A stretch of 64,000 nucleotides of DNA from Patiriisocius marinus (GTDB lineage Bacteria; Bacteroidota; Bacteroidia; Flavobacteriales; Flavobacteriaceae). Shown here in pieces: positions 14,157 to 22,518 of the stretch (position 1 is the first letter of the stretch; every line of letters starts with the position of its first letter). Where the stretch lies: positions 62,001-126,000 of the forward strand of contig NZ_BKCG01000008.1 of NCBI RefSeq assembly GCF_008974325.1, given 5' to 3'. The notes beneath the pieces are model-generated. The model did not search any database. It was not told the origin of the DNA and saw only the letters and a program-made list of their open reading frames with translations. The position numbers were made by a program, and so were the translations under genes.

Positions 14157-15383
14157 TTAATAAGCCTTTGGATAACACAGATAATATTTAACCACTTTCT
14201 TAGACAATGCTTTTATATTTAACTGGTCGCTAGCCTTTGCTACATCTACAACCTTTCCAGATTTAGCTAAAATATTTATAGTATCAACATCCATTTTATA
14301 TGCTTGATTAGAGATACATCCATCAAAAACAAAGTAGCTTGCTTCGTGTTCCGAAATATTAAAGCGTGACATTATTTCTTCTTTCTTTAATGCAATCTTA
14401 CCTTCAGAAATTGGCTTTTTCTTTAATTTTACTTTTAACAAATCACGATTAAGGAGCATTTCAGAAACATTACGAAGTACAAAATCATCGTGATTCTGCC
14501 ATTCTTTCATCGCTCCTATTATATCATAGTCATCTAACTTAGAAAAACGATTTAATACTTTTTTACTAAAGTTATCTGGACCTATACTGTTCTTTAAAAA
14601 ATACGTTAAACCAGTGCTTGCTGGTAATGACATACCCTGAGCAGTCAACTCTTTTGCTCTTTTCAACACTTTAGTTAATAGTTGTTCTGCAACAATACCT
14701 GTTTTATGTAAATACACTTGCCAATACATTAGACGCCTTGCAACAATAAACTTCTCTACACTATAGATTGCTTTTTCTTCAACTACTAAACGATCTTCAA
14801 CCACATTTAGCATCGCAATTAATCGTTCACTATTTACAGACCCTTCACTCACACCAGTGTAAAAACTATCACGACGTAAATAGTCTAACCTATCCATATC
14901 TAATTGACTCGAAATAAGTTGGTGTAAAAATTTACGACTGTATTCATTTTTAAAAATAGTAATAGCAAGTGTTAATTTAGAGTTAAACTCAGTATTCAAT
15001 TCCTCCATAAACAACAAAGAAATATGCTCGTGAGAAACCCCTTCTACAATGCTATGTTCCATCGCGTGAGAGAAGGGACCGTGCCCGATATCGTGCAACA
15101 GAATAGCTATTAAAAGCGCCTCTTTTTCATCTTCTGAAACATCAACACCTTTAAACCTAAGCACTTGAATTGCTTTTGACATTAAATGCATTGCCCCTAG
15201 TGCATGATGAAATCGAGTATGATGTGCTCCTGGATATACTAAATACGACATTCCCATTTGCGAAATTCTACGCAACCTTTGAAAGTATGGATGAGCTATT
15301 AAGTCGAATATGAGTGTACTTGGAATAGTAATAAAACCATAGATTGGATCGTTTACTATTTTAAGCTTGTTGGGCTGTTTCAA
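14157..15383 (-). CDS. HD-domain phosphohydrolase
   Basis: A 408-residue cytoplasmic protein with an HD domain at about 50-180: H59 in RFHHALGAMH, the HD pair H97-D98 in LLHDIGHGPFSH, and an Asp in the LDMDRLDYLRRDS helix. This is the arrangement of dNTPase-like HD hydrolases (SAMHD1-type fold) and matches a family often found next to lpxD in Bacteroidota. The substrate is not known from sequence. The start is TTG at 15383; an in-frame stop lies upstream and the next Met is beyond residue 40, inside conserved sequence. It probably begins the lpx transcript. Confidence 0.85.
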   Translation of the reverse strand: MKQPNKLKIVNDPIYGFITIPSTLIFDLIAHPYFQRLRRISQMGMSYLVYPGAHHTRFHHALGAMHLMSKAIQVLRFKGVDVSEDEKEALLIAILLHDIGHGPFSHAMEHSIVEGVSHEHISLLFMEELNTEFNSKLTLAITIFKNEYSRKFLHQLISSQLDMDRLDYLRRDSFYTGVSEGSVNSERLIAMLNVVEDRLVVEEKAIYSVEKFIVARRLMYWQVYLHKTGIVAEQLLTKVLKRAKELTAQGMSLPASTGLTYFLKNSIGPDNFSKKVLNRFSKLDDYDIIGAMKEWQNHDDFVLRNVSEMLLNRDLLKVKLKKKPISEGKIALKKEEIMSRFNISEHEASYFVFDGCISNQAYKMDVDTINILAKSGKVVDVAKASDQLNIKALSKKVVKYYLCYPKAY

Positions 15384-15497
15384 ATTTTAACTTTAAATTA
15401 ATTGAGACATACGACAAAAAGTGATTTTCAATAGTAAATTTGAATCTCACGAATTTCTGAAATTATTAAAATTTCGGTATGAAAATTGATGATAATC

Positions 15498-15522
15498 AAG
15501 CTCGGTTACGATAACGGAGCTT
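15498..15522 (+). promoter_or_regulatory. Stem-loop in the porX leader
   Basis: AAGCTC-G-GTTA-CGA-TAAC-G-GAGCTT forms a hairpin of 6 and 4 pairs interrupted by one G-G mismatch. It ends 18 bases before the porX ATG and has no T-run, so it is not a terminator. It may affect translation or stability of the porX message. A TAAATTTG box lies upstream at 15435-15442. Confidence 0.4.
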
Positions 15523-15540
15523 TAGAACAAATATACAACT

Positions 15541-17091
15541 ATGAGCGAAATAAAGGTACTTTGGGTAGATGATGAAATTGACTTACTTAAACCACATATA
15601 ATTTTTCTAGAAAAGAAAAACTATAAAGTGACAACAGCTCAAAGTGGTATGGAAGCCCTAGAGGAAATAAAAGAGCAGAATTTTGATATTGTTTTTTTAG
15701 ATGAAAATATGCCAGGCTTAACTGGACTGGAAACTTTAGCTGAATTAAAAGAAATAAACGCCTCCCTTCCTGTGGTTATGATCACAAAAAGTGAAGAAGA
15801 GTATATTATGGAGGAAGCTATTGGCTCTAAAATTGCTGATTATTTAATTAAGCCTGTGAATCCTAATCAGATTTTATTGAGTTTAAAAAAGAATTTAGAC
15901 CATTCAAGATTAGTGAGTGCTAAAACTACTTCAAGTTACCAGCAAGAATTTAGAAAGATTGCAATGGACTTGTCAATGGTCAATAGCTTTGAAGAATGGG
16001 CAGATTTGTACCAAAAACTAGTCTATTGGGAACTTGAACTTGAAGGCATTGAGGACACTGGAATGTTTGACATACTCGAATCTCAAAAAAATGAAGCAAA
16101 TACACAGTTTTGCAAATTTATAGATAAACAATATCCTGAATGGTTTAATGGTGCTGACGCTCCAATAATGTCCCACACACTTTTTAAAGAACGCGTGGCT
16201 CCTAAATTAAAAAAAGGTGCTCCTACTTTATTAGTTGTTGTTGACAATTTACGTTACGATCAATGGAAAGCCTTTGAGCCTTATATTGCTAATAGCTATA
16301 AAAAGGATACGGAAGAAATGTATTATGGAATTCTCCCTACTGCAACTCAATATGCAAGAAATGCTATTTTTAGTGGATTAATGCCAAGTGATATGGAAAA
16401 AAAACATCCAGATCTATGGCTAAATGATACTGAGGAAGGTGGAAAAAACATGAATGAAGATAAATTTCTTGCCGCCCAATTAAAGCGATTAAAATTAGAT
16501 CTAAACTGGAGCTACCATAAAATTTCTAGTTTAAAACAAGGTAAGCGTTTAGCTGAAAATTTCAAAAGTCATAAAAATGATGATTTAACGGTAATAGTCT
16601 ACAATTTTGTTGACATCCTTTCCCACTCTAAAACGGAAATGGAAGTCATTAAAGAACTTGCTTCTACAGATAAATCATATAGATCATTAACTCAAAGTTG
16701 GTTTAAGAATTCACCATTGATGGATATAATTCAACAAGCTTCTTCAATGGGTTTTAAATTGATGATCACTACAGACCACGGAACAATTAATGTAAAAAAC
16801 CCTAGTAAAGTTATTGGAGATAAAAACACAAGTTTGAATCTACGTTATAAAACGGGTAAGAGTTTAACATATGAGGATAAAGATGTTTTAGCAGCAAAAG
16901 ATCCTGCTTCTATTCATTTACCAAAAATTAATATGAGTAGTTCATTTATCTTTGCAAAAGGTGATTTATTTTTTGCTTACCCTAATAATTATAACCATTA
17001 TGTGAGTTATTATAGAAATACCTACCAACACGGTGGAGTTTCACTTGAAGAAATGATAATCCCCTTTGTAACATTATCCCCAAGGCAATAA
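15541..17091 (+). CDS. porX: PorX, response regulator with PglZ phosphatase domain
   Basis: PorX is the regulator that works with the PorY kinase to control type IX secretion genes in Bacteroidota. The 516-residue protein has a receiver domain (1-120) with the acidic pocket D10/D11, phospho-acceptor D54 (VFLDENMPG) and K102 region (YLIKPVNP), a helical linker (about 125-210), and a PglZ/alkaline phosphatase-type domain from about 215 to the end. That domain shows LLVVVDNLRYDQW and TTDHGT, carrying metal-binding Asp and His residues. It lacks any DNA-binding domain, as is normal for PorX. The ATG at 15541 gives the standard N-terminus (MSEIKVLWVDDE). tsaE follows after 88 bases. Confidence 0.95.
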   Translation: MSEIKVLWVDDEIDLLKPHIIFLEKKNYKVTTAQSGMEALEEIKEQNFDIVFLDENMPGLTGLETLAELKEINASLPVVMITKSEEEYIMEEAIGSKIADYLIKPVNPNQILLSLKKNLDHSRLVSAKTTSSYQQEFRKIAMDLSMVNSFEEWADLYQKLVYWELELEGIEDTGMFDILESQKNEANTQFCKFIDKQYPEWFNGADAPIMSHTLFKERVAPKLKKGAPTLLVVVDNLRYDQWKAFEPYIANSYKKDTEEMYYGILPTATQYARNAIFSGLMPSDMEKKHPDLWLNDTEEGGKNMNEDKFLAAQLKRLKLDLNWSYHKISSLKQGKRLAENFKSHKNDDLTVIVYNFVDILSHSKTEMEVIKELASTDKSYRSLTQSWFKNSPLMDIIQQASSMGFKLMITTDHGTINVKNPSKVIGDKNTSLNLRYKTGKSLTYEDKDVLAAKDPASIHLPKINMSSSFIFAKGDLFFAYPNNYNHYVSYYRNTYQHGGVSLEEMIIPFVTLSPRQ

Positions 17092-17179
17092 TTTTTGTAA
17101 GAATTTTCGCTATGAATGTTTTTTATCGATTTTTTTGATAGAATATTACATTTAATCGATATATTCGCTTCTTTCAACG

Positions 17180-17593
17180 ATGAATTTAACTTATAAACTC
17201 CCCGAAATAAGCAAAGTAGCAAAAAGTGTTACTTCTAAGCTCCAGCATAGGACAGTTCTGTTTTATGGTGAAATGGGTGTGGGCAAAACTACCCTAATCA
17301 AAGAAATGGCCTCTGCACTTGGTGTGACTGACACTTTAAGCAGCCCAACTTTCTCAATTGTTAACGAGTATGAAGCCGGAGAGAATCTTCTGTACCATTT
17401 TGATTGTTATAGAATCGAAAATGAAACAGAAGCTTTAGATTTTGGAATTGAAGATTATTTAAGTTCTGATCAATTTATTTTTATAGAATGGCCAGAACGT
17501 ATAGCGGGTTTATTGCCCGAAAATACAACTAGGATCAACCTAACCAAAAACCAAGACGGAAGTAGAACAATAAACCTAATGCCTGTGAAATAA
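17180..17593 (+). CDS. tsaE: TsaE, ATPase of the tRNA threonylcarbamoyladenosine complex
   Basis: TsaE binds ATP and drives the TsaB-TsaD complex that puts t6A at position 37 of tRNAs reading ANN codons. The 137-residue protein has the P-loop GEMGVGKTT at 30-38, the family motif SPTFSIVNEY at about 55-64, and FIEWPERI late in the fold. It is a full-length, intact copy. Degenerate pieces of a second tsaE lie at 18683-18873, left from the tandem duplication of this region. Confidence 0.95.
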   Translation: MNLTYKLPEISKVAKSVTSKLQHRTVLFYGEMGVGKTTLIKEMASALGVTDTLSSPTFSIVNEYEAGENLLYHFDCYRIENETEALDFGIEDYLSSDQFIFIEWPERIAGLLPENTTRINLTKNQDGSRTINLMPVK

Positions 17594-17711
17594 ATCCCTA
17601 CAACACATACTTTTAATGAACATCTTCTAAGAACTTCTCACTTTTGATAATATTAATTTAGGCAAAATAACCTTTACCTGAGAAAAACTTAACAAGATAC
17701 GGCGAACATAG

Positions 17712-17744
17712 TTGGCGTACATGTGTTTTTTCGTGATAGATTTG
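17712..17744 (+). promoter_or_regulatory. Promoter of lipoprotein/membrane pair, copy 1
   Basis: TTGG at 17712-17715, a 21-base spacer and TAGATTTG at 17737-17744 fit the Bacteroidota TTG-N(17-23)-TAnnTTTG consensus. The same elements with the same spacer length recur before copy 2. Predicted leader is about 45 bases. Confidence 0.7.
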
Positions 17745-17795
17745 TAGTGTAAAACTTACAAACCATTTTATAACCTCACAAAAAAAACTAACATT

Positions 17796-17933
17796 ATGAA
17801 AGTAATTAAAACAGTATGTATCGTAGCGATTTTCTCAATGGGTCTATTTGCGTCTTGCACGCCAGAAAACCTAGAAAATGACCAAACAGAACAACAAATT
17901 GACAGAAGTATCCCAATCCCAAGACAAGGGTAA
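17796..17933 (+). CDS. Small lipoprotein, copy 1
   Basis: A 45-residue precursor starting MKVIKTVCIVAIF with a lipobox ending LFASC (Cys21), so the mature part is only about 25 residues (CTPENLENDQTEQQ...). It is real rather than chance: the copy 2 gene at 19063-19197 keeps the signal peptide, lipobox and the CTPENLEN start with mostly silent or conservative changes. Its last 56 bases overlap the start of the membrane-protein gene in the +1 frame, and the membrane gene starts 82 bases after this ATG in both copies. No known family. A role as a partner or assembly factor of the membrane protein is an inference. Confidence 0.8.
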   Translation: MKVIKTVCIVAIFSMGLFASCTPENLENDQTEQQIDRSIPIPRQG

Positions 17934-18405
17934 GAAGTCTCTTATAGTAGGTGGTTTGCTAGTAATTATTATTGCTAGTACTCCTATTTTATTTTATACA
18001 TATGAAAGTTTCCCAAACTCAACAGTTTGGGAAACTTATTTTTTTACATTAGAAACTAATTTCCCCTCTTGGATTAATTTTGCGTATTATCTTATTGGTA
18101 AGTCAATCCCATTATTATTATTACTTATTTGGTTTTTTACTTGTAAACATTGGTGGCACTGGATTATACTTGTTCCTATTGCGATGTATTCTTTTCAGAT
18201 ATGGGGCGTTTTAAATGAGAGCAATGGTATGGATGAAGTAGAACTAATCTATGTGATCCCATTAATGATGGTTCTCGTACCATTCGTTTACTTAATTAGA
18301 GCAAAGCTTTTCTCTAAAGTACGTGGTAATGATCTTGCTGCATTTGAAGCTGAATTAGGACAGAATCGTACTTTATGGCAACAAATTATCGATCTCTTTA
18401 GATAA
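17878..18405 (+). CDS. Four-helix membrane protein, copy 1
   Basis: A 175-residue protein with a charged N-terminus (MTKQNNK...KGKK), four predicted membrane helices (about 22-43, 66-87, 91-111, 119-143) and a cytoplasmic C-terminal amphipathic tail ending TLWQQIIDLFR. Strong motifs shared with copy 2 are YESFP, WET.FFT, a Trp-rich WFFTCKHWWHW patch between helices 2 and 3, and DEVE before helix 4. The pattern of positive charges suggests both ends face the cytoplasm. It starts inside the lipoprotein gene, so translation is probably coupled. I do not recognise the family. The aromatic patch could contact the membrane surface or a quinone-type ligand, but nothing proves this. Confidence 0.8.
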   Translation: MTKQNNKLTEVSQSQDKGKKSLIVGGLLVIIIASTPILFYTYESFPNSTVWETYFFTLETNFPSWINFAYYLIGKSIPLLLLLIWFFTCKHWWHWIILVPIAMYSFQIWGVLNESNGMDEVELIYVIPLMMVLVPFVYLIRAKLFSKVRGNDLAAFEAELGQNRTLWQQIIDLFR

Positions 18406-18442
18406 TACTACAAATTTGTTTTTAAAATAAAAACACTTTCCT

Positions 18443-18590
18443 AAAAAAATAAATACGTAAATTGGTGCTGTTATTAGTATAATAACCATAACAAATCTCA
18501 CTTTCCCATTTGCTAAATCATAGTTGCATTAATTTAATGCAATGCTAATATTAGCTATTATTGGTAATACATTTATCAACTAACTAAAAT
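18443..18590 (+). pseudogene. Decayed remnant of the 5' end of ald
   Basis: The stretch before ald (AAATCCGTAACTTGGTGCTG at 19720-19739) is mirrored at 18451-18470 as AAATACGTAAATTGGTGCTG, and the ald start ACCATGACAAAACC is mirrored as ACCATAACAAATCT with ATG changed to ATA at 18488. Without any gap, AATGCTAGAGGTTGC of ald codons 18-23 appears as AATGCTAATATTAGC at the same offset (54 bases from the start codon). Stops and many substitutions make it non-functional. Similarity fades after about 18590. Confidence 0.75.
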
Positions 18591-18682
18591 TGTTAAAATG
18601 TAATACAGATTGCTACAATGCTATGCGATAATCTCGTTAAATGATATGCTCATTCAACTAGTAACCTAAATGTTACATAATA

Positions 18683-18873
18683 GTTTTTTTCGAACAATAC
18701 ATTTAATCTATATTCGCCAAAACCACTAATTAGAATTTAGAGTAATTAGTATTTTTTTTTTAATAATAAATTAAGTTAAAGTATTATCTAAACATAACAT
18801 TTAGATTTTCAATAACAATAAAATATATCGAAGAGATACATAAAACAAAATGCACGTGAAATAGATCCCTACA
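18683..18873 (+). pseudogene. Decayed remnant of tsaE (promoter region and 3' end)
   Basis: 18683-18719 matches the region before tsaE (17130-17168): both have a T-run, then ACATTTAATC and ATATTCGC. 18829-18873 matches the end of tsaE (17557-17603): CGAAGAGATACATAAAAC against CGGAAGTAGAACAATAAAC, then TGCACGTGAAATAG against TGCCTGTGAAATAA and a shared ATCCCTACA. Some 280 bases of the tsaE body are missing between the two parts. This fixes the order of a former second tsaE copy. Confidence 0.75.
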
Positions 18874-18981
18874 GTAAATACACATTTTAGTAATTCTTCT
18901 AACAAAACAGGTTAAATTGTACGATTTTTAAGTTAAATAACTTAATAACTAAAAAAACCTGACAATATACGACGAAGAAAG

Positions 18982-19014
18982 TTGGTTAAAATTTATTTTT
19001 TCGCTATAGATTTG
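18982..19014 (+). promoter_or_regulatory. Promoter of lipoprotein/membrane pair, copy 2
   Basis: TTGG at 18982-18985, a 21-base spacer, TAGATTTG at 19007-19014; the downstream TAGTATAAAACTTACAAACC also matches copy 1. The elements are conserved although the bases between them have diverged. Confidence 0.7.
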
Positions 19015-19062
19015 TAGTATAAAACTTACAAACCTTAGTAGAAACTCACAAAAACCAAAATT

Positions 19063-19197
19063 ATGAAAGTATTTAAAAATGTATGTATTGTAGCGATTTT
19101 ATCAATGGGCTTATTCGCTTCTTGTACTCCAGAAAATCTTGAAAATGAACAACAAATCGACCCACATACCATCAAAGAAGTCCCTGCGAAAGGATAA
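19063..19197 (+). CDS. Small lipoprotein, copy 2
   Basis: A 44-residue precursor (MKVFKNVCIVAILSMGLFAS, then Cys21) whose mature part begins CTPENLENEQQID. Signal peptide, lipobox and the first eight mature residues equal copy 1, while the tail (PHTIKEVPAKG) differs. The last 53 bases overlap the copy 2 membrane gene in the +1 frame. Most changes relative to copy 1 keep the residue, a sign of selection on the protein. Function unknown. Confidence 0.8.
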   Translation: MKVFKNVCIVAILSMGLFASCTPENLENEQQIDPHTIKEVPAKG

Positions 19198-19672
19198 AAA
19201 AAGCCTTTTGTACGGTGGGATAATTGTTTTATTAATTGCAATTAGCCCATATTTCTTTTATGTATATGAAAGTTTCCCAAGTGATTCACAAACTTGGGAA
19301 ACTTCATTTTTTACAATAACTACGAGTTATGCTAATATTCAGGTATATTTTTGGTTTTTAACTGGAAAAATTGTTCCCATATACCTTCTATTGTTATGGT
19401 TTTTTACTTGTAAAAACTGGTGGCACTGGATCATTATGGCGCCATTATCTATTTATATATTTCAATTATGGTCTCTAGTAAACCAAAGTAGTAGTTTAGA
19501 CGAAGTAGAGATATACTATATGTTTCCTGTTATGCTTGTTTTAGTACCTTGTGTTTACCTAATAAGAGCTAAAATATTTAATAATATTCAAGGTAACGAT
19601 TTTGAAAAATTCGAAGAAGATTTAGGTAAAAAACGTTCTGTATGGGATCAAATTACTGATCTGTTTAGATAA
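19145..19672 (+). CDS. Four-helix membrane protein, copy 2
   Basis: A 175-residue paralogue of the protein at 17878-18405 with the same four helices and motifs: YESFP, WETSFFT, WFFTCKNWWHWII and LDEVEIYY, then the basic loop IRAKIFNN and a tail ending SVWDQITDLFR. I chose the ATG at 19145 because it matches the copy 1 start exactly in position relative to the lipoprotein gene (82 bases after its ATG); a TTG two codons earlier is less likely. The N-terminal tails of the two paralogues differ most, where they are also constrained by the overlapping lipoprotein frame. No recognised family. Confidence 0.8.
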   Translation: MNNKSTHIPSKKSLRKDKKSLLYGGIIVLLIAISPYFFYVYESFPSDSQTWETSFFTITTSYANIQVYFWFLTGKIVPIYLLLLWFFTCKNWWHWIIMAPLSIYIFQLWSLVNQSSSLDEVEIYYMFPVMLVLVPCVYLIRAKIFNNIQGNDFEKFEEDLGKKRSVWDQITDLFR

Positions 19673-19753
19673 AAAATATCAATTGCATATCTAAAAAATC
19701 ATCTTTATTTAAAAAAAATAAATCCGTAACTTGGTGCTGTTAACACAACCACC

Positions 19754-20953
19754 ATGACAAAACCAACATCCCCTTTTACTGCAGCACAGTTATTACCTCA
19801 AGAAGAAATGCTAGAGGTTGCAAAAAAAAGAGGTGATCTATATATAGGCTTACCAAAAGAAACTTACTTTCAGGAAAAAAGAATCTGTTTAACTCCAGAT
19901 GCCGTTGCTGCTGTTGTAGCTAATGGCCATAAAGTTTTATTAGAATCTGGTGCAGGAGAAGAAGCAGGCTTTAGTGATAAAAATTATAGTGACGCTGGAG
20001 CACAAATCACCAACGATACAAAAAAAGTTTTTGGTTGCCCTATGATTTTAAAAGTGGAGCCGCCTACAATGGATGAACTTGAAATGATGAATCCAAAAAC
20101 GGTTCTTATTTCAGCACTTCAATTAAAAACACGTCAAAAAAGTTATTTCCAAGCATTAAAACGTAAAAAAATAACCGCATTAGCATTTGAATTTATTAAA
20201 GATGAAGATCACTCATACCCTGCTGTAAAAGCACTTAGTGAAATAGCAGGAACAGCTTCCGTATTAATTGCAGCTGAGTTAATGGTGAATGCAAAAAAAG
20301 GTAAAGGACTTCTCTTCGGAAATATTAGCGGTGTACCACCAGTTGAAGTTGTAGTTATAGGCGCTGGGACTGTAGGACAATTTGCCATTAGATCTGCTAT
20401 GGGATTAGGAGCTAACGTTAAAGTATTTGACAGCTCCATAACTAGACTCCGCAAATTGCAATCTAATTTAGGCTGTACTTTATACACCTCTACTATCCAA
20501 CCAAAAAACCTTTTAAAATCTTTAAGACGATGCGATGTAGCTATTGGCGCTGTTCGAGGGGATAATCGATCTCCTATTATAGTTAGCGAACAAATGGTAG
20601 AAAAAATGAAAGAAGGAGCTGTAATTATTGATGTAAGTGTCGACATGGGAGGTTGTTTTGAAACTACCGAAATGACAAGTCACGATAAACCTACACATAT
20701 TAAACACGGTGTTATTCATTATGGAGTTCCTAATATTCCGGCAAGATACCCTAGAACAGCCTCAATATCAATAAGTAATATATTTACACCTTACTTACTT
20801 GAAATAGCTGAATGCGGAGGTGTAGAACAAGCTATACGTTATGACCCAGGTCTCGCAAATGGTTTGTATTTTTACCGAGGAATTTTAACAAGTAAATCTA
20901 TTAGTGATTGGTTCGATTTACCACACAGTGATATTAACTTGTTGATGTTTTAA
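19754..20953 (+). CDS. ald: Alanine dehydrogenase family protein
   Basis: A 399-residue member of the alanine dehydrogenase / transhydrogenase alpha family, which couples NAD(H) to oxidative deamination of L-alanine to pyruvate. The Rossmann motif VIGAGTVGQFA is at 201-211 and a Lys in ILKVEPP (K100) matches the pyruvate-binding lysine. The position of the catalytic histidine of classical Ald (in the TYLHLA motif) appears to be Gln123 (ISALQLKTR), so the substrate may differ. There is an N-terminal extension of about 28 residues. The start ATG at 19754 is preceded by the conserved TAACTTGGTGCTGTTA stretch also seen in the remnant at 18443. A hypothetical gene follows after 12 bases. Confidence 0.8.
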   Translation: MTKPTSPFTAAQLLPQEEMLEVAKKRGDLYIGLPKETYFQEKRICLTPDAVAAVVANGHKVLLESGAGEEAGFSDKNYSDAGAQITNDTKKVFGCPMILKVEPPTMDELEMMNPKTVLISALQLKTRQKSYFQALKRKKITALAFEFIKDEDHSYPAVKALSEIAGTASVLIAAELMVNAKKGKGLLFGNISGVPPVEVVVIGAGTVGQFAIRSAMGLGANVKVFDSSITRLRKLQSNLGCTLYTSTIQPKNLLKSLRRCDVAIGAVRGDNRSPIIVSEQMVEKMKEGAVIIDVSVDMGGCFETTEMTSHDKPTHIKHGVIHYGVPNIPARYPRTASISISNIFTPYLLEIAECGGVEQAIRYDPGLANGLYFYRGILTSKSISDWFDLPHSDINLLMF

Positions 20954-20965
20954 AAATACTACTTA

Positions 20966-21340
20966 ATGAATATAGCTAAACGTTTTGTTTTTTTCGGATT
21001 TGGATTTGTTATTGGACTTATCTTACTATTCTTCTTTTTAGGAGGAAAAAAGACAGGTTGCGATTATGGCCCAGAAGCAAGAGTTTTAAAAAACATTAGA
21101 ATAAAGCCTAAAAGTTATAGCGAAGAGGCGCTAAAAACTTTAGCAATTAACGGATGGGATTCTACGGTAATAAACATCGCATTAAAAAAAGGTGATGTCT
21201 TGTTTTCAGAAGGTAATCGCGAATTAGATTCCTGTAAACAATATGTAATAGAACATACTTATAAGGAAAAACCTTTTAAAATGCTAATTGAAAACTGTGA
21301 CTCAATAGCTAAAATACTTACCGTAGAAAGCTCAAATTAA
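20966..21340 (+). CDS. Hypothetical single-pass membrane protein
   Basis: A 124-residue protein with one N-terminal hydrophobic helix (about 8-26, FGFGFVIGLILLFFFLGG) followed by a basic patch and a soluble domain of mixed helices and strands (RVLKNIRIKPKSYSEEAL...). It has conserved-looking cysteines at about 32, 91 and 111. It follows ald by 12 bases and is probably in its operon. I do not recognise the family. Confidence 0.65.
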   Translation: MNIAKRFVFFGFGFVIGLILLFFFLGGKKTGCDYGPEARVLKNIRIKPKSYSEEALKTLAINGWDSTVINIALKKGDVLFSEGNRELDSCKQYVIEHTYKEKPFKMLIENCDSIAKILTVESSN

Positions 21341-21345
21341 GCAAC

Positions 21346-22518
21346 TTATATTTTTCTACGCGCTTTTTCTTTTTTCAATAATGTAAGCTCTCTACTTGTT
21401 TGACCCGCAACCGAAGTATTTTCTTCAGCACGTCTAATCAAATACGGCATAACATCTTTTACAGGCCCAAAAGGCATATATTTGGCAACATTATAGCCCA
21501 CTTGAGCCATATTGTAACTAATATGGTCACTCATACCATACAATTGGCCAAACCAAATTCTTTCGTCATTTTTAAACAACCCCTTTTCCTTAATAATTTC
21601 CATCGCTAGATAATTACTAGCTTCATTATGAGTTCCTACAAAAATTGAAATATCCTCTAGATTATCAAGAATATAATTCATCACTTCGTTAAAGTTGTCG
21701 TCTGTAGCTTGTTTACTCTCACAAATAGGCGATGGATACCCTTTTTCTTTAGCGCGGTCATTTTCTTTTTCCATGTAAGCACCACGTACCACTTTAAAAC
21801 CTAATTTATAACCTCCAGCAATAGCTTTCTGATGTTGTTCTTTTAAATAATCTAAACGATCCCAACGATAGCACTGTAAAGTATTATAAACAATAGCCTT
21901 CTTTTTATTGTACTTAGCCATCATTTGCTCACACAAATCATCAGCCGCATCTTGCATCCAGCTTTCTTCTCCATCAATCAACAAAGCAATATCTGAAGCT
22001 AATCCTGTTGAACAAACAGTATCAAAACGCTTCACTATTCTATCCCACTCTTCTTTTTCAGCTTCAGATAAAGACTCTTTTTCTGTGACTTTTTGCCATA
22101 TTTTAAAACGCCCAAAACCAGTAGGTTTAAAAACCGAAAATGGCATTGCATCTTTATGGTCAGCAAATTTTGTCAAGTTAACAACCATTTCCATAGTAGC
22201 ATCAAAATGAGACTCGTCCTCTTTGCCTTCAACTGAATAATCTAAAACTGAATGTACTCCCGCAGTATAAAGGCTATCAACCACAGGCATACAATCCTGC
22301 TCATTAACGCCTCCACAAAAATGATCGAACACAGTAGAACGTATCAAACCTTCTACTGGCAAATGCATATTTAATGCAAATTTGGTTGCTGCTGTTCCTA
22401 TGCGAACCAACGGCTCTTTTGAAATCATCTTAAAAAGAAAATATGCGCGTTCAAGCTCGCTATCACTTTTTAAAGAAAAAGCAATTTCAGTATTATCAAA
22501 AAGAGTATTCGATACCAT
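21346..22518 (-). CDS. Proline dehydrogenase
   Basis: A 390-residue FAD enzyme of the proline dehydrogenase (PutA N-terminal domain, PRODH) family, which oxidises proline to pyrroline-5-carboxylate and passes electrons to the respiratory chain. The TIM-barrel motifs are present: KVVRGAYMEKE, FVGTHNE and QLYGMSD, and the C-terminal YNVAKYMPFGPV and YLIRRAEENTS, whose two Arg residues bind the proline carboxylate. A longer frame opens at 22542, but the -7 box at 22540-22547 overlaps it, so I chose the ATG at 22518 (MVSNTLFDN). The gene is monofunctional, with no aldehyde dehydrogenase part. It is divergent from aroB. Confidence 0.93.
   Translation of the reverse strand: MVSNTLFDNTEIAFSLKSDSELERAYFLFKMISKEPLVRIGTAATKFALNMHLPVEGLIRSTVFDHFCGGVNEQDCMPVVDSLYTAGVHSVLDYSVEGKEDESHFDATMEMVVNLTKFADHKDAMPFSVFKPTGFGRFKIWQKVTEKESLSEAEKEEWDRIVKRFDTVCSTGLASDIALLIDGEESWMQDAADDLCEQMMAKYNKKKAIVYNTLQCYRWDRLDYLKEQHQKAIAGGYKLGFKVVRGAYMEKENDRAKEKGYPSPICESKQATDDNFNEVMNYILDNLEDISIFVGTHNEASNYLAMEIIKEKGLFKNDERIWFGQLYGMSDHISYNMAQVGYNVAKYMPFGPVKDVMPYLIRRAEENTSVAGQTSRELTLLKKEKARRKI

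What the first reader, a model, noticed from the sequence alone, without database searches (positions are those of the whole stretch)
17125..19766. Old tandem duplication of the tsaE-to-ald interval with decayed flanks
The sequence shows two units. Unit 1 runs from the tsaE upstream region through tsaE, a small lipoprotein, a membrane protein and a decayed ald start (17125-18590). Unit 2 repeats the tsaE upstream region (18683-18719), the tsaE 3' end (18829-18873), the lipoprotein, the membrane protein and the true ald start. The ald remnant keeps the same 54-base offset between start codon and the AATGCTA word, so it is not chance. The housekeeping parts decayed while both lipoprotein/membrane pairs stayed open, which suggests selection for two copies of the pair.
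Basis: seen in the sequence. Interest (0 to 1): 0.75.

Follow-up and report, generated by a model that had tools for sequence, protein, structure and literature searches.

The report
Duplicated, allele-swapping lipoprotein-membrane gene pair
A marine bacterium carries two side-by-side versions of a tiny lipoprotein plus membrane-protein gene pair, left by an old duplication, at a spot where related bacteria appear to swap diverged versions of the same pair, as peptide-communication genes do elsewhere; its function is untested.

Summary
The duplication is real. Window 17559-18547 and 18830-19813 align colinearly, from the tsaE 3' end through a 45/44-aa lipoprotein and an overlapping membrane gene to the first ~60 nt of ald. 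The second tsaE is almost gone; its supposed upstream copy is weak (1 of 300 shuffles as good). Both pairs are intact.

It is not a plain duplication. Membrane copy 1 is sister to the single copy of Patiriisocius marinistellae; pairing it with copy 2 is rejected (AU p=0.013). The promoter plus signal-peptide part says the opposite (u1+P. marinistellae rejected, p=0.034). The switch falls at lipoprotein nt 108. Sister species with diverged alleles switch at nt 98-112 in 5 of 7 chosen pairs. The clearest is Luteirhabdus/Thermobacterium: similar flanks around a ~2-kb replaced block. The lipoprotein ends in Gly in 96 of 96 rows, and the membrane protein covaries with the middle domain of a nearby AraC-type sensor.

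Best reading: an old tandem merodiploid at a recombining, allele-diverse locus, possibly peptide signalling. Duplication: near certain. Allele exchange: likely. Signalling: inference.

The parts
15541..17091 (+). porX (T9SS response regulator PorX), conserved left flank
   Evidence: NCBIfam NF052313 E=1e-256
17180..17593 (+). tsaE, intact
   Evidence: Pfam TsaE 7.6e-37
17683..17795 (+). upstream/leader of lipoprotein 1, with a TAGATTTG box at 17737-17744 that resembles the Bacteroidota -7 box (motif recalled, not tested)
   Evidence: 17683-17784 is 80% identical to 18953-19054; box aligned in relatives, position checked
17796..17933 (+). lipoprotein 1 (45 aa, lipobox-like ..FASC, ends PRQG)
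   Evidence: 96 relative rows all end in Gly
17878..18405 (+). membrane protein 1 (175 aa), overlaps lipoprotein 1 out of frame by 56 nt; the vertically inherited type
   Evidence: 76% to P. marinistellae, clade 100/99
18443..18547 (+). decayed ald upstream region and first ~20 codons (start ATG now ATA at 18488)
18684..18717 (+). possible copy of the tsaE upstream region (weak)
   Evidence: score 39; 1 of 300 shuffles as good
18830..18881 (+). remnant of tsaE 3' end and following bases
   Evidence: 18838-18881 is 77% identical to 17567-17610; alignment from 18830
18953..19062 (+). upstream/leader of lipoprotein 2, TAGATTTG at 19007-19014
19063..19197 (+). lipoprotein 2 (44 aa, ends PAKG)
19145..19672 (+). 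membrane protein 2 (175 aa from ATG 19145), diverged allele; overlaps lipoprotein 2 out of frame by 53 nt
   Evidence: 53% to copy 1; groups with Planktosalinus-type rows 98/91 on a long branch
17903..17903 (.). best single change point of unit 1/unit 2 identity (83% before, 63% after) = lipoprotein nt 108
19754..20953 (+). ald (alanine dehydrogenase), intact right flank
   Evidence: Pfam AlaDh_PNT_C 4.9e-61
20966..21340 (+). 124-aa ORF that follows ald in most relatives too

Best explanation
An old tandem duplication (or single-crossover insertion, which leaves the same tsaE-pair-ald'/tsaE'-pair-ald structure) made a merodiploid of the lipoprotein/membrane-protein locus that sits between tsaE and ald in many Flavobacteriaceae. 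The spare tsaE and ald decayed; both pairs were kept. The pairs behave as two alleles: pair 1 is the vertically inherited one, and pair 2, from lipoprotein codon ~36 through the membrane gene, is a diverged version behind a promoter and signal peptide of the lineage's own kind. A junction at about the same place separates alleles of sister species, so the locus recombines allele cassettes. Most likely mechanism (inferred): the lipoprotein is processed to a short lipidated peptide with a conserved C-terminal Gly; the membrane protein, encoded in an overlapping frame, handles, exports or recognises it; an AraC-type membrane sensor encoded nearby in many relatives reads it, with allele-specific matching. 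Shown here: duplication, intact pairs, incongruent trees, junctions, covariation. Inferred: allele exchange in the window itself, lipidation, topology, peptide handling, signalling.
For: Duplication. Both pairs open and constrained. Tree conflict: membrane protein rejects mem1+mem2 (p=0.013, 38 of 98 rows used); 5' DNA rejects u1+P. marinistellae (p=0.034, 28 of 60 rows used). Site patterns: intergenic + lipoprotein N-part u1=u2 53, u1=Pmar 28, u2=Pmar 24; overlap + membrane gene 41, 117, 48. Shared junction: window nt 108 (log-likelihood gain 14.2); 5 of 7 sister-species pairs 98-112 (gains 15-59), the other two 145 and 264; 4 of the 17 tandem loci tested a against b, 105-108, but with weak gains (3.2-8.4). 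Allele replacement: L060/L117, porX DNA 94%, ald DNA 91%, membrane protein 53%, with sharp edges. Aequorivita a copies belong with L115/L117/L119 by membrane protein (100/100), but the 5' DNA of the 6 a copies tested rejects a clade with L115 and L117 (p=2e-7). Covariation of membrane protein with sensor middle domain: partial rho 0.52, p=0.002, 21 loci. All 96 lipoprotein rows end in Gly.
Against: The lipoprotein leader and signal-peptide codons are conserved at the DNA level (4-fold identity 0.55 versus 0.31-0.38 in tsaE, ald and mem; leader 75% versus 47% after tsaE; 42 of 79 loci), so part of the 5' likeness and the junction may be constraint rather than exchange. The clade mem1+mem2+P. 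marinistellae is not rejected (p=0.218), so fast evolution of an old in-lineage copy fits too. In the 5' tree a third genome of the genus (L108) falls between P. marinistellae and u1+u2 (89/78), and u1+u2 is not a starred clade. No donor of mem2 is identified; its branch is long. ald covaries with the sensor middle domain as strongly (0.50), so linkage may explain part of the covariation. The window has no such sensor gene beside ald; the genome's best full-length homologue is 33% identical on another contig. The sister pairs were picked because their membrane genes differ; the pairs L069/L073 (no drop in identity) and L066/L102 (only a gradual decline) show no clear junction.
Confidence: 0.55

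Rival explanations
1. Plain tandem duplication inside the Patiriisocius lineage before the split from P. marinistellae, loss of copy 2 there, and fast evolution of copy 2 here; 5' parts stay alike by constraint or gene conversion. No allele exchange.
For: Shared ~20-nt insertion in u1, u2 and P. marinistellae; genus clade of the membrane proteins not rejected (p=0.218); 5' DNA constraint; long mem2 branch.
Against: mem2 groups with Planktosalinus-type rows (98/91; 95/93); mem2 is nearer to P. marinistellae (59%) than to mem1 (53%); allele replacement is plain in L060/L117 and likely in other pairs.
Confidence: 0.3
2. A contact or secreted killing pair: the short lipoprotein is a toxin-like peptide and the membrane protein its immunity partner; both alleles are kept to be immune to two types.
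For: Small lipoprotein plus linked membrane protein, allele replacement and doubling.
Against: No PADLOC match at E<=0.1 except a weak 2TM effector hit for copy 1 (E=0.012); a regulator's middle domain covaries with the membrane protein, which killing pairs do not need; the membrane protein is present in 318 of 395 family genomes, more like a core trait.
Confidence: 0.15
3. Neutral relic: duplicated DNA still decaying, the second pair open by chance.
For: Flanking tsaE and ald copies did decay.
Against: Probability of 175 open codons about 5e-7 for copy 2; differences between the copies by codon position 64/40/87.
Confidence: 0.03

Closest known systems
Rap-Phr signalling pairs of Bacillus (Even-Tov et al. 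2016, PMC5199041; abstract and outline seen)
   Different: There the phr gene is duplicated within the locus and the receptor is Rap; here a peptide-like lipoprotein and a membrane protein are duplicated together, and no signalling is shown.
ComQXPA and agr polymorphic quorum-sensing loci (only search listings seen; locus anatomy recalled)
   Same: Small precursor gene beside a membrane-protein gene and a sensor; in relatives, a variable block between conserved flanks that ends inside the sensor gene.
   Different: No AgrB or ComQ family match in Pfam or NCBIfam; sensor is an AraC-type one-component protein, not a histidine kinase; precursor is a lipoprotein; Gram-negative.
Aequorivita tandem pair at the same locus
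   Same: Two lipoprotein/membrane pairs between tsaE and ald, of different types, with the best change point at lipoprotein nt 105-108 in the 4 loci tested (weak gains).
   Different: The a copy is of another membrane-protein type than either window copy, so an independent event; ald and tsaE remnants between the pairs were not searched for.

Membership tests
Tandem duplication / merodiploid | Colinear direct repeat including truncated flanking genes at the join | tested here: met
   17559-18547 versus 18830-19813
Tandem duplication / merodiploid | Duplicated genes are each other's nearest relatives | tested here: inconclusive
   Membrane protein: mem1+mem2 rejected p=0.013. 5' part: u1+u2 is the best arrangement, 94/88
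agr/ComQXP-type polymorphic signalling locus | Variable block with sharp edges between near-identical flanks | tested here: met
   In relatives, not in the window: L060/L117; partly in L047/L049, L063/L089, L079/L110
agr/ComQXP-type polymorphic signalling locus | Dedicated processing enzyme of the AgrB or ComQ family | tested here: not met
   No Pfam or NCBIfam match above cut-off for either membrane protein; no PDB relative by sequence at E<=1 and no fold match at E<=0.001
agr/ComQXP-type polymorphic signalling locus | Sensor histidine kinase in the locus | tested here: not met
   Pfam finds only HTH_18/AraC domains in the neighbour sensor of L060 and L117; in the window a proline-dehydrogenase-like ORF (name recalled) follows orf124
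agr/ComQXP-type polymorphic signalling locus | Secreted peptide with allele-specific activity | not testable with these tools
   Needs culture experiments
Toxin-immunity pair | Match to known toxin or immunity families | tested here: not met
   one weak PADLOC 2TM hit E=0.012
Toxin-immunity pair | Growth inhibition relieved by the partner | not testable with these tools
   Needs culture experiments

The most novel reading that the evidence does not exclude
Flavobacteriaceae carry an undescribed peptide-communication locus, typically between tsaE and ald: a ~45-aa lipoprotein ending in P-x-x-G or P-x-x-x-G, an overlapping membrane protein (its family present in 318 of 395 genomes) and, often nearby, an AraC-type membrane sensor whose middle domain matches the allele. 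Alleles are exchanged as cassettes with preferred edges (lipoprotein codon ~35, sensor residue ~130), giving communication groups, and the window caught a lineage holding two alleles at once.
Probability: 0.28. Interest if true: 0.85.

Novelty: new variant of a known kind. Interest (0 to 1): 0.58.

Why it matters
If the allele reading is right, a widespread locus next to the PorX gene of a large marine bacterial family is a recombining specificity locus, and peptide-type kin signalling would become directly testable in Bacteroidota. The window's two-allele tandem would be a natural case of duplication before a change of specificity, as proposed for Rap-Phr (PMC5199041, abstract). If only the duplication is right, it is an ordinary paralogue pair.

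Tried and rejected
Rejected or led nowhere: (1) the two pairs as each other's sisters throughout. (2) The tsaE-upstream repeat as strong evidence: weak and in promoter-like sequence. (3) A known family for the membrane protein: Pfam, NCBIfam and PADLOC gave nothing convincing; PDB by sequence none at E<=1; AlphaFold model pLDDT 74.6, pTM 0.57, best Foldseek E 1.4. (4) A structured RNA: no Rfam match at gathering score in 15000-22000. (5) dN/dS as a clock: synonymous sites are saturated even between the window and P. marinistellae porX and tsaE. (6) First genome-contig scan with one protein found nothing; the alignment scan found 428 relatives, of which the best 80 (79 loci) were kept, so counts from named loci lean towards close relatives.

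(7) Literature: 8 searches. I saw listings with titles and abstract starts, plus the abstract and outline of PMC5199041. No listed title or abstract start mentions this gene pair; no held paper has two of PorX, alanine dehydrogenase and tsaE. Most subscription papers are not held, so absence is weak. The TPR label given to the sensor's middle domain in my scripts and notes is recalled from its look; Pfam found only the AraC helix-turn-helix, so I do not rest on it.
Full report
WHERE IT IS. The window lies in an unnamed 3.56-Mb genome (G000, contig C8) of the same genus group as G008. G008's contig C3 has the same length (376,120) as the Patiriisocius marinistellae KK4 contig that carries this locus. 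The order is porX, tsaE, lipoprotein, membrane gene, [join], lipoprotein, membrane gene, ald. The own genome holds just these two copies of the membrane gene.

OBSERVATION. The claimed duplication is confirmed. Repeats at one spacing (1267-1271 nt) run from the tsaE stop to the ald upstream region, and one alignment joins 17559-18547 to 18830-19813. Both outer segments score far above dinucleotide shuffles. The second tsaE copy is reduced to its last ~35 nt. The further upstream match (18684-18717) is only as good as the best of 300 shuffles, and 10 relatives' tsaE upstream regions match the gap no better than chance. Homology of the ald remnant ends at 18547; its start codon is now ATA.

BOTH PAIRS ARE REAL GENES. 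Open frames of 175 codons would be expected by chance at about 2e-6 and 5e-7. Differences between the two membrane genes by codon position are 64/40/87 over 172 codons; dN/dS is 0.23 with dS 1.6, close to saturation. The membrane gene overlaps the lipoprotein gene out of frame by 56 and 53 nt in the window, and by 50-59 nt in 95 of 96 pairs of the named loci; the other, L108, has a broken membrane gene.

THE LOCUS ELSEWHERE. The membrane protein family is found in 318 of 395 genomes of the family, drawn evenly from a larger group at 95% completeness or more. Of 79 named loci (from the best 80 of 428 matches), 68 show both tsaE and ald, and 17 of these hold two pairs: 16 with Aequorivita titles plus UBA3591. 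All 96 lipoproteins read from the 79 loci end in Gly, with Pro at the fourth (73) or fifth (23) place from the end. Among 20 more distant loci my filter found a lipoprotein frame in two, both ending in Gly and not overlapping the membrane gene; the filter is narrow, since it missed the one in L011 seen.

TWO HISTORIES IN ONE UNIT. In a tree of 98 membrane proteins, copy 1 is sister to P. marinistellae (100/99), while copy 2 sits on a long branch with Planktosalinus-type rows (98/91). In a set of 38 of those rows, copy 1 + copy 2 is rejected (AU p=0.013), but copy 1 + copy 2 + P. marinistellae is not (p=0.218). For the DNA from the tsaE end to lipoprotein codon ~27 (28 of 60 rows), unit 1 + unit 2 is the best arrangement (94/88, not starred), with L108 next to them, and unit 1 + P. 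marinistellae is rejected (p=0.034). Site patterns agree: u1=u2 leads in the intergenic and lipoprotein N-part (53 against 28 and 24), u1=P. marinistellae in the overlap and membrane gene (117 against 41 and 48). All three share a ~20-nt insertion after the TAGATTTG-like box, absent in the other 10 loci aligned, so the 5' part of unit 2 is of this lineage. The best single change point between units 1 and 2 is position 17903, lipoprotein nt 108; unit 1 against P. marinistellae has its best, weak, change point at 18349.

THE SAME JUNCTION BETWEEN SPECIES. Luteirhabdus pelagi (L060) and Thermobacterium salinum (L117) have porX at 94% and ald at 91% DNA identity. Their flanks run at 75-100% per 100 nt. 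From lipoprotein nt ~102 identity falls to 57-71% in the membrane gene; inside the neighbouring sensor gene it is 79-81% in the part coding the DNA-binding end, then 43-55% through the middle, and it returns abruptly to 98% at L060:6001. Their membrane proteins are of different types (53%; tree). Sensor residues 26-130 are 83% and residues 131-385 only 22-23% identical. In seven sister pairs chosen for diverged membrane genes the change point was nt 98-112 in five, and 145 and 264 in the others; in four Aequorivita genomes (of 17 tandem loci) the a/b change point was 105-108 but with weak gains. L069/L073 (almost identical alleles) shows no drop, and L066/L102 only a gradual decline. Aequorivita a copies are of the L115/L117/L119 membrane type (100/100), yet the 5' DNA of six of them groups with the b copies (94/81) and rejects a clade with L115 and L117 (p=2e-7). 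Against exchange as the only cause: the 5' part is itself unusually conserved at synonymous and leader sites (42 of 79 loci), so constraint contributes.

A POSSIBLE PARTNER. In many relatives a divergently oriented gene for a ~575-aa protein, with an AraC-type helix-turn-helix in the two scanned, lies between the membrane gene and ald or just after ald-orf124. In 21 loci (of 119 candidates, after dropping multi-copy, broken, incomplete or duplicate ones) membrane-protein distances follow the sensor middle domain (partial rho 0.52, p=0.002 given porX, ald and the sensor N part), not its N part (-0.02). ald follows the middle domain as well (0.50), so linkage is not excluded. The three closest pairs fit cognate change: L060/L117 (porX 100, ald 99, membrane 53, middle 23), L047/L049 (98, 98, 68, 40), L069/L073 (98, 98, 99, 91). 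In the window no such gene adjoins ald; a 33% full-length homologue lies on contig C1.

HOW IT MOST LIKELY WORKS. The lipoprotein would be cut and lipidated at its ..SC site and expose a ~25-residue peptide with a near-fixed start (CTPE in 95 of 96 rows), a fixed end (G) and a variable stretch between. The overlapping membrane protein (AlphaFold helices 22-44, 65-88, 94-112, 119-148 and two short ones; mean pLDDT 74.6) would process or hold it, and a membrane sensor would read it. Two alleles in one cell would let it send or sense two types. Lipidation, topology and signalling are inference.

JUDGEMENT. Tandem duplication: near certain. Retention of both pairs by selection: likely. Diverged allele in unit 2: likely, but an old, fast-evolving in-lineage copy is not excluded. 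Signalling: plausible, unproven.

Noticed in passing
window 17683-17880 and relatives: The lipoprotein leader and signal-peptide codons are conserved beyond the protein: 4-fold site identity 0.55 versus 0.31-0.38 in tsaE, ald and mem; 90 nt before the start 75% versus 47% after tsaE (42 of 79 loci). Could be an RNA or DNA signal.
   Followed up: partly
G272, G463, G355, G400, G241, G333: Arrays of ORFs of about 320-440 aa that carry the membrane domain, several with two matches in one open frame, lie close to the single-domain gene, mostly on the opposite strand (on the same strand in G400).
   Followed up: no
G002, G003, G004, G005 (L121-L125, L132, L139-L141): Same-genus draft genomes break their contigs just after tsaE or inside the lipoprotein/membrane genes, as if the spot were variable or repeated.
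   Followed up: partly
L123:2758-6003 (G005) and L084:6607-8214: Other small gene sets sit at this spot; in G005 four ORFs lie upstream of ald and no membrane gene was found on that contig stretch. By eye, a ~150-aa and a ~390-aa ORF are shared with L084.
   Followed up: no
L057:523-1056, L108:4001-4474 (= G007), L113:4020-4546: Membrane genes that look broken (a stop, or two frames), so the pair is sometimes lost.
   Followed up: no
window 18443-18473: The ald upstream copy is 94% identical over 31 nt although the ald remnant beside it has decayed; perhaps still a promoter.
   Followed up: no
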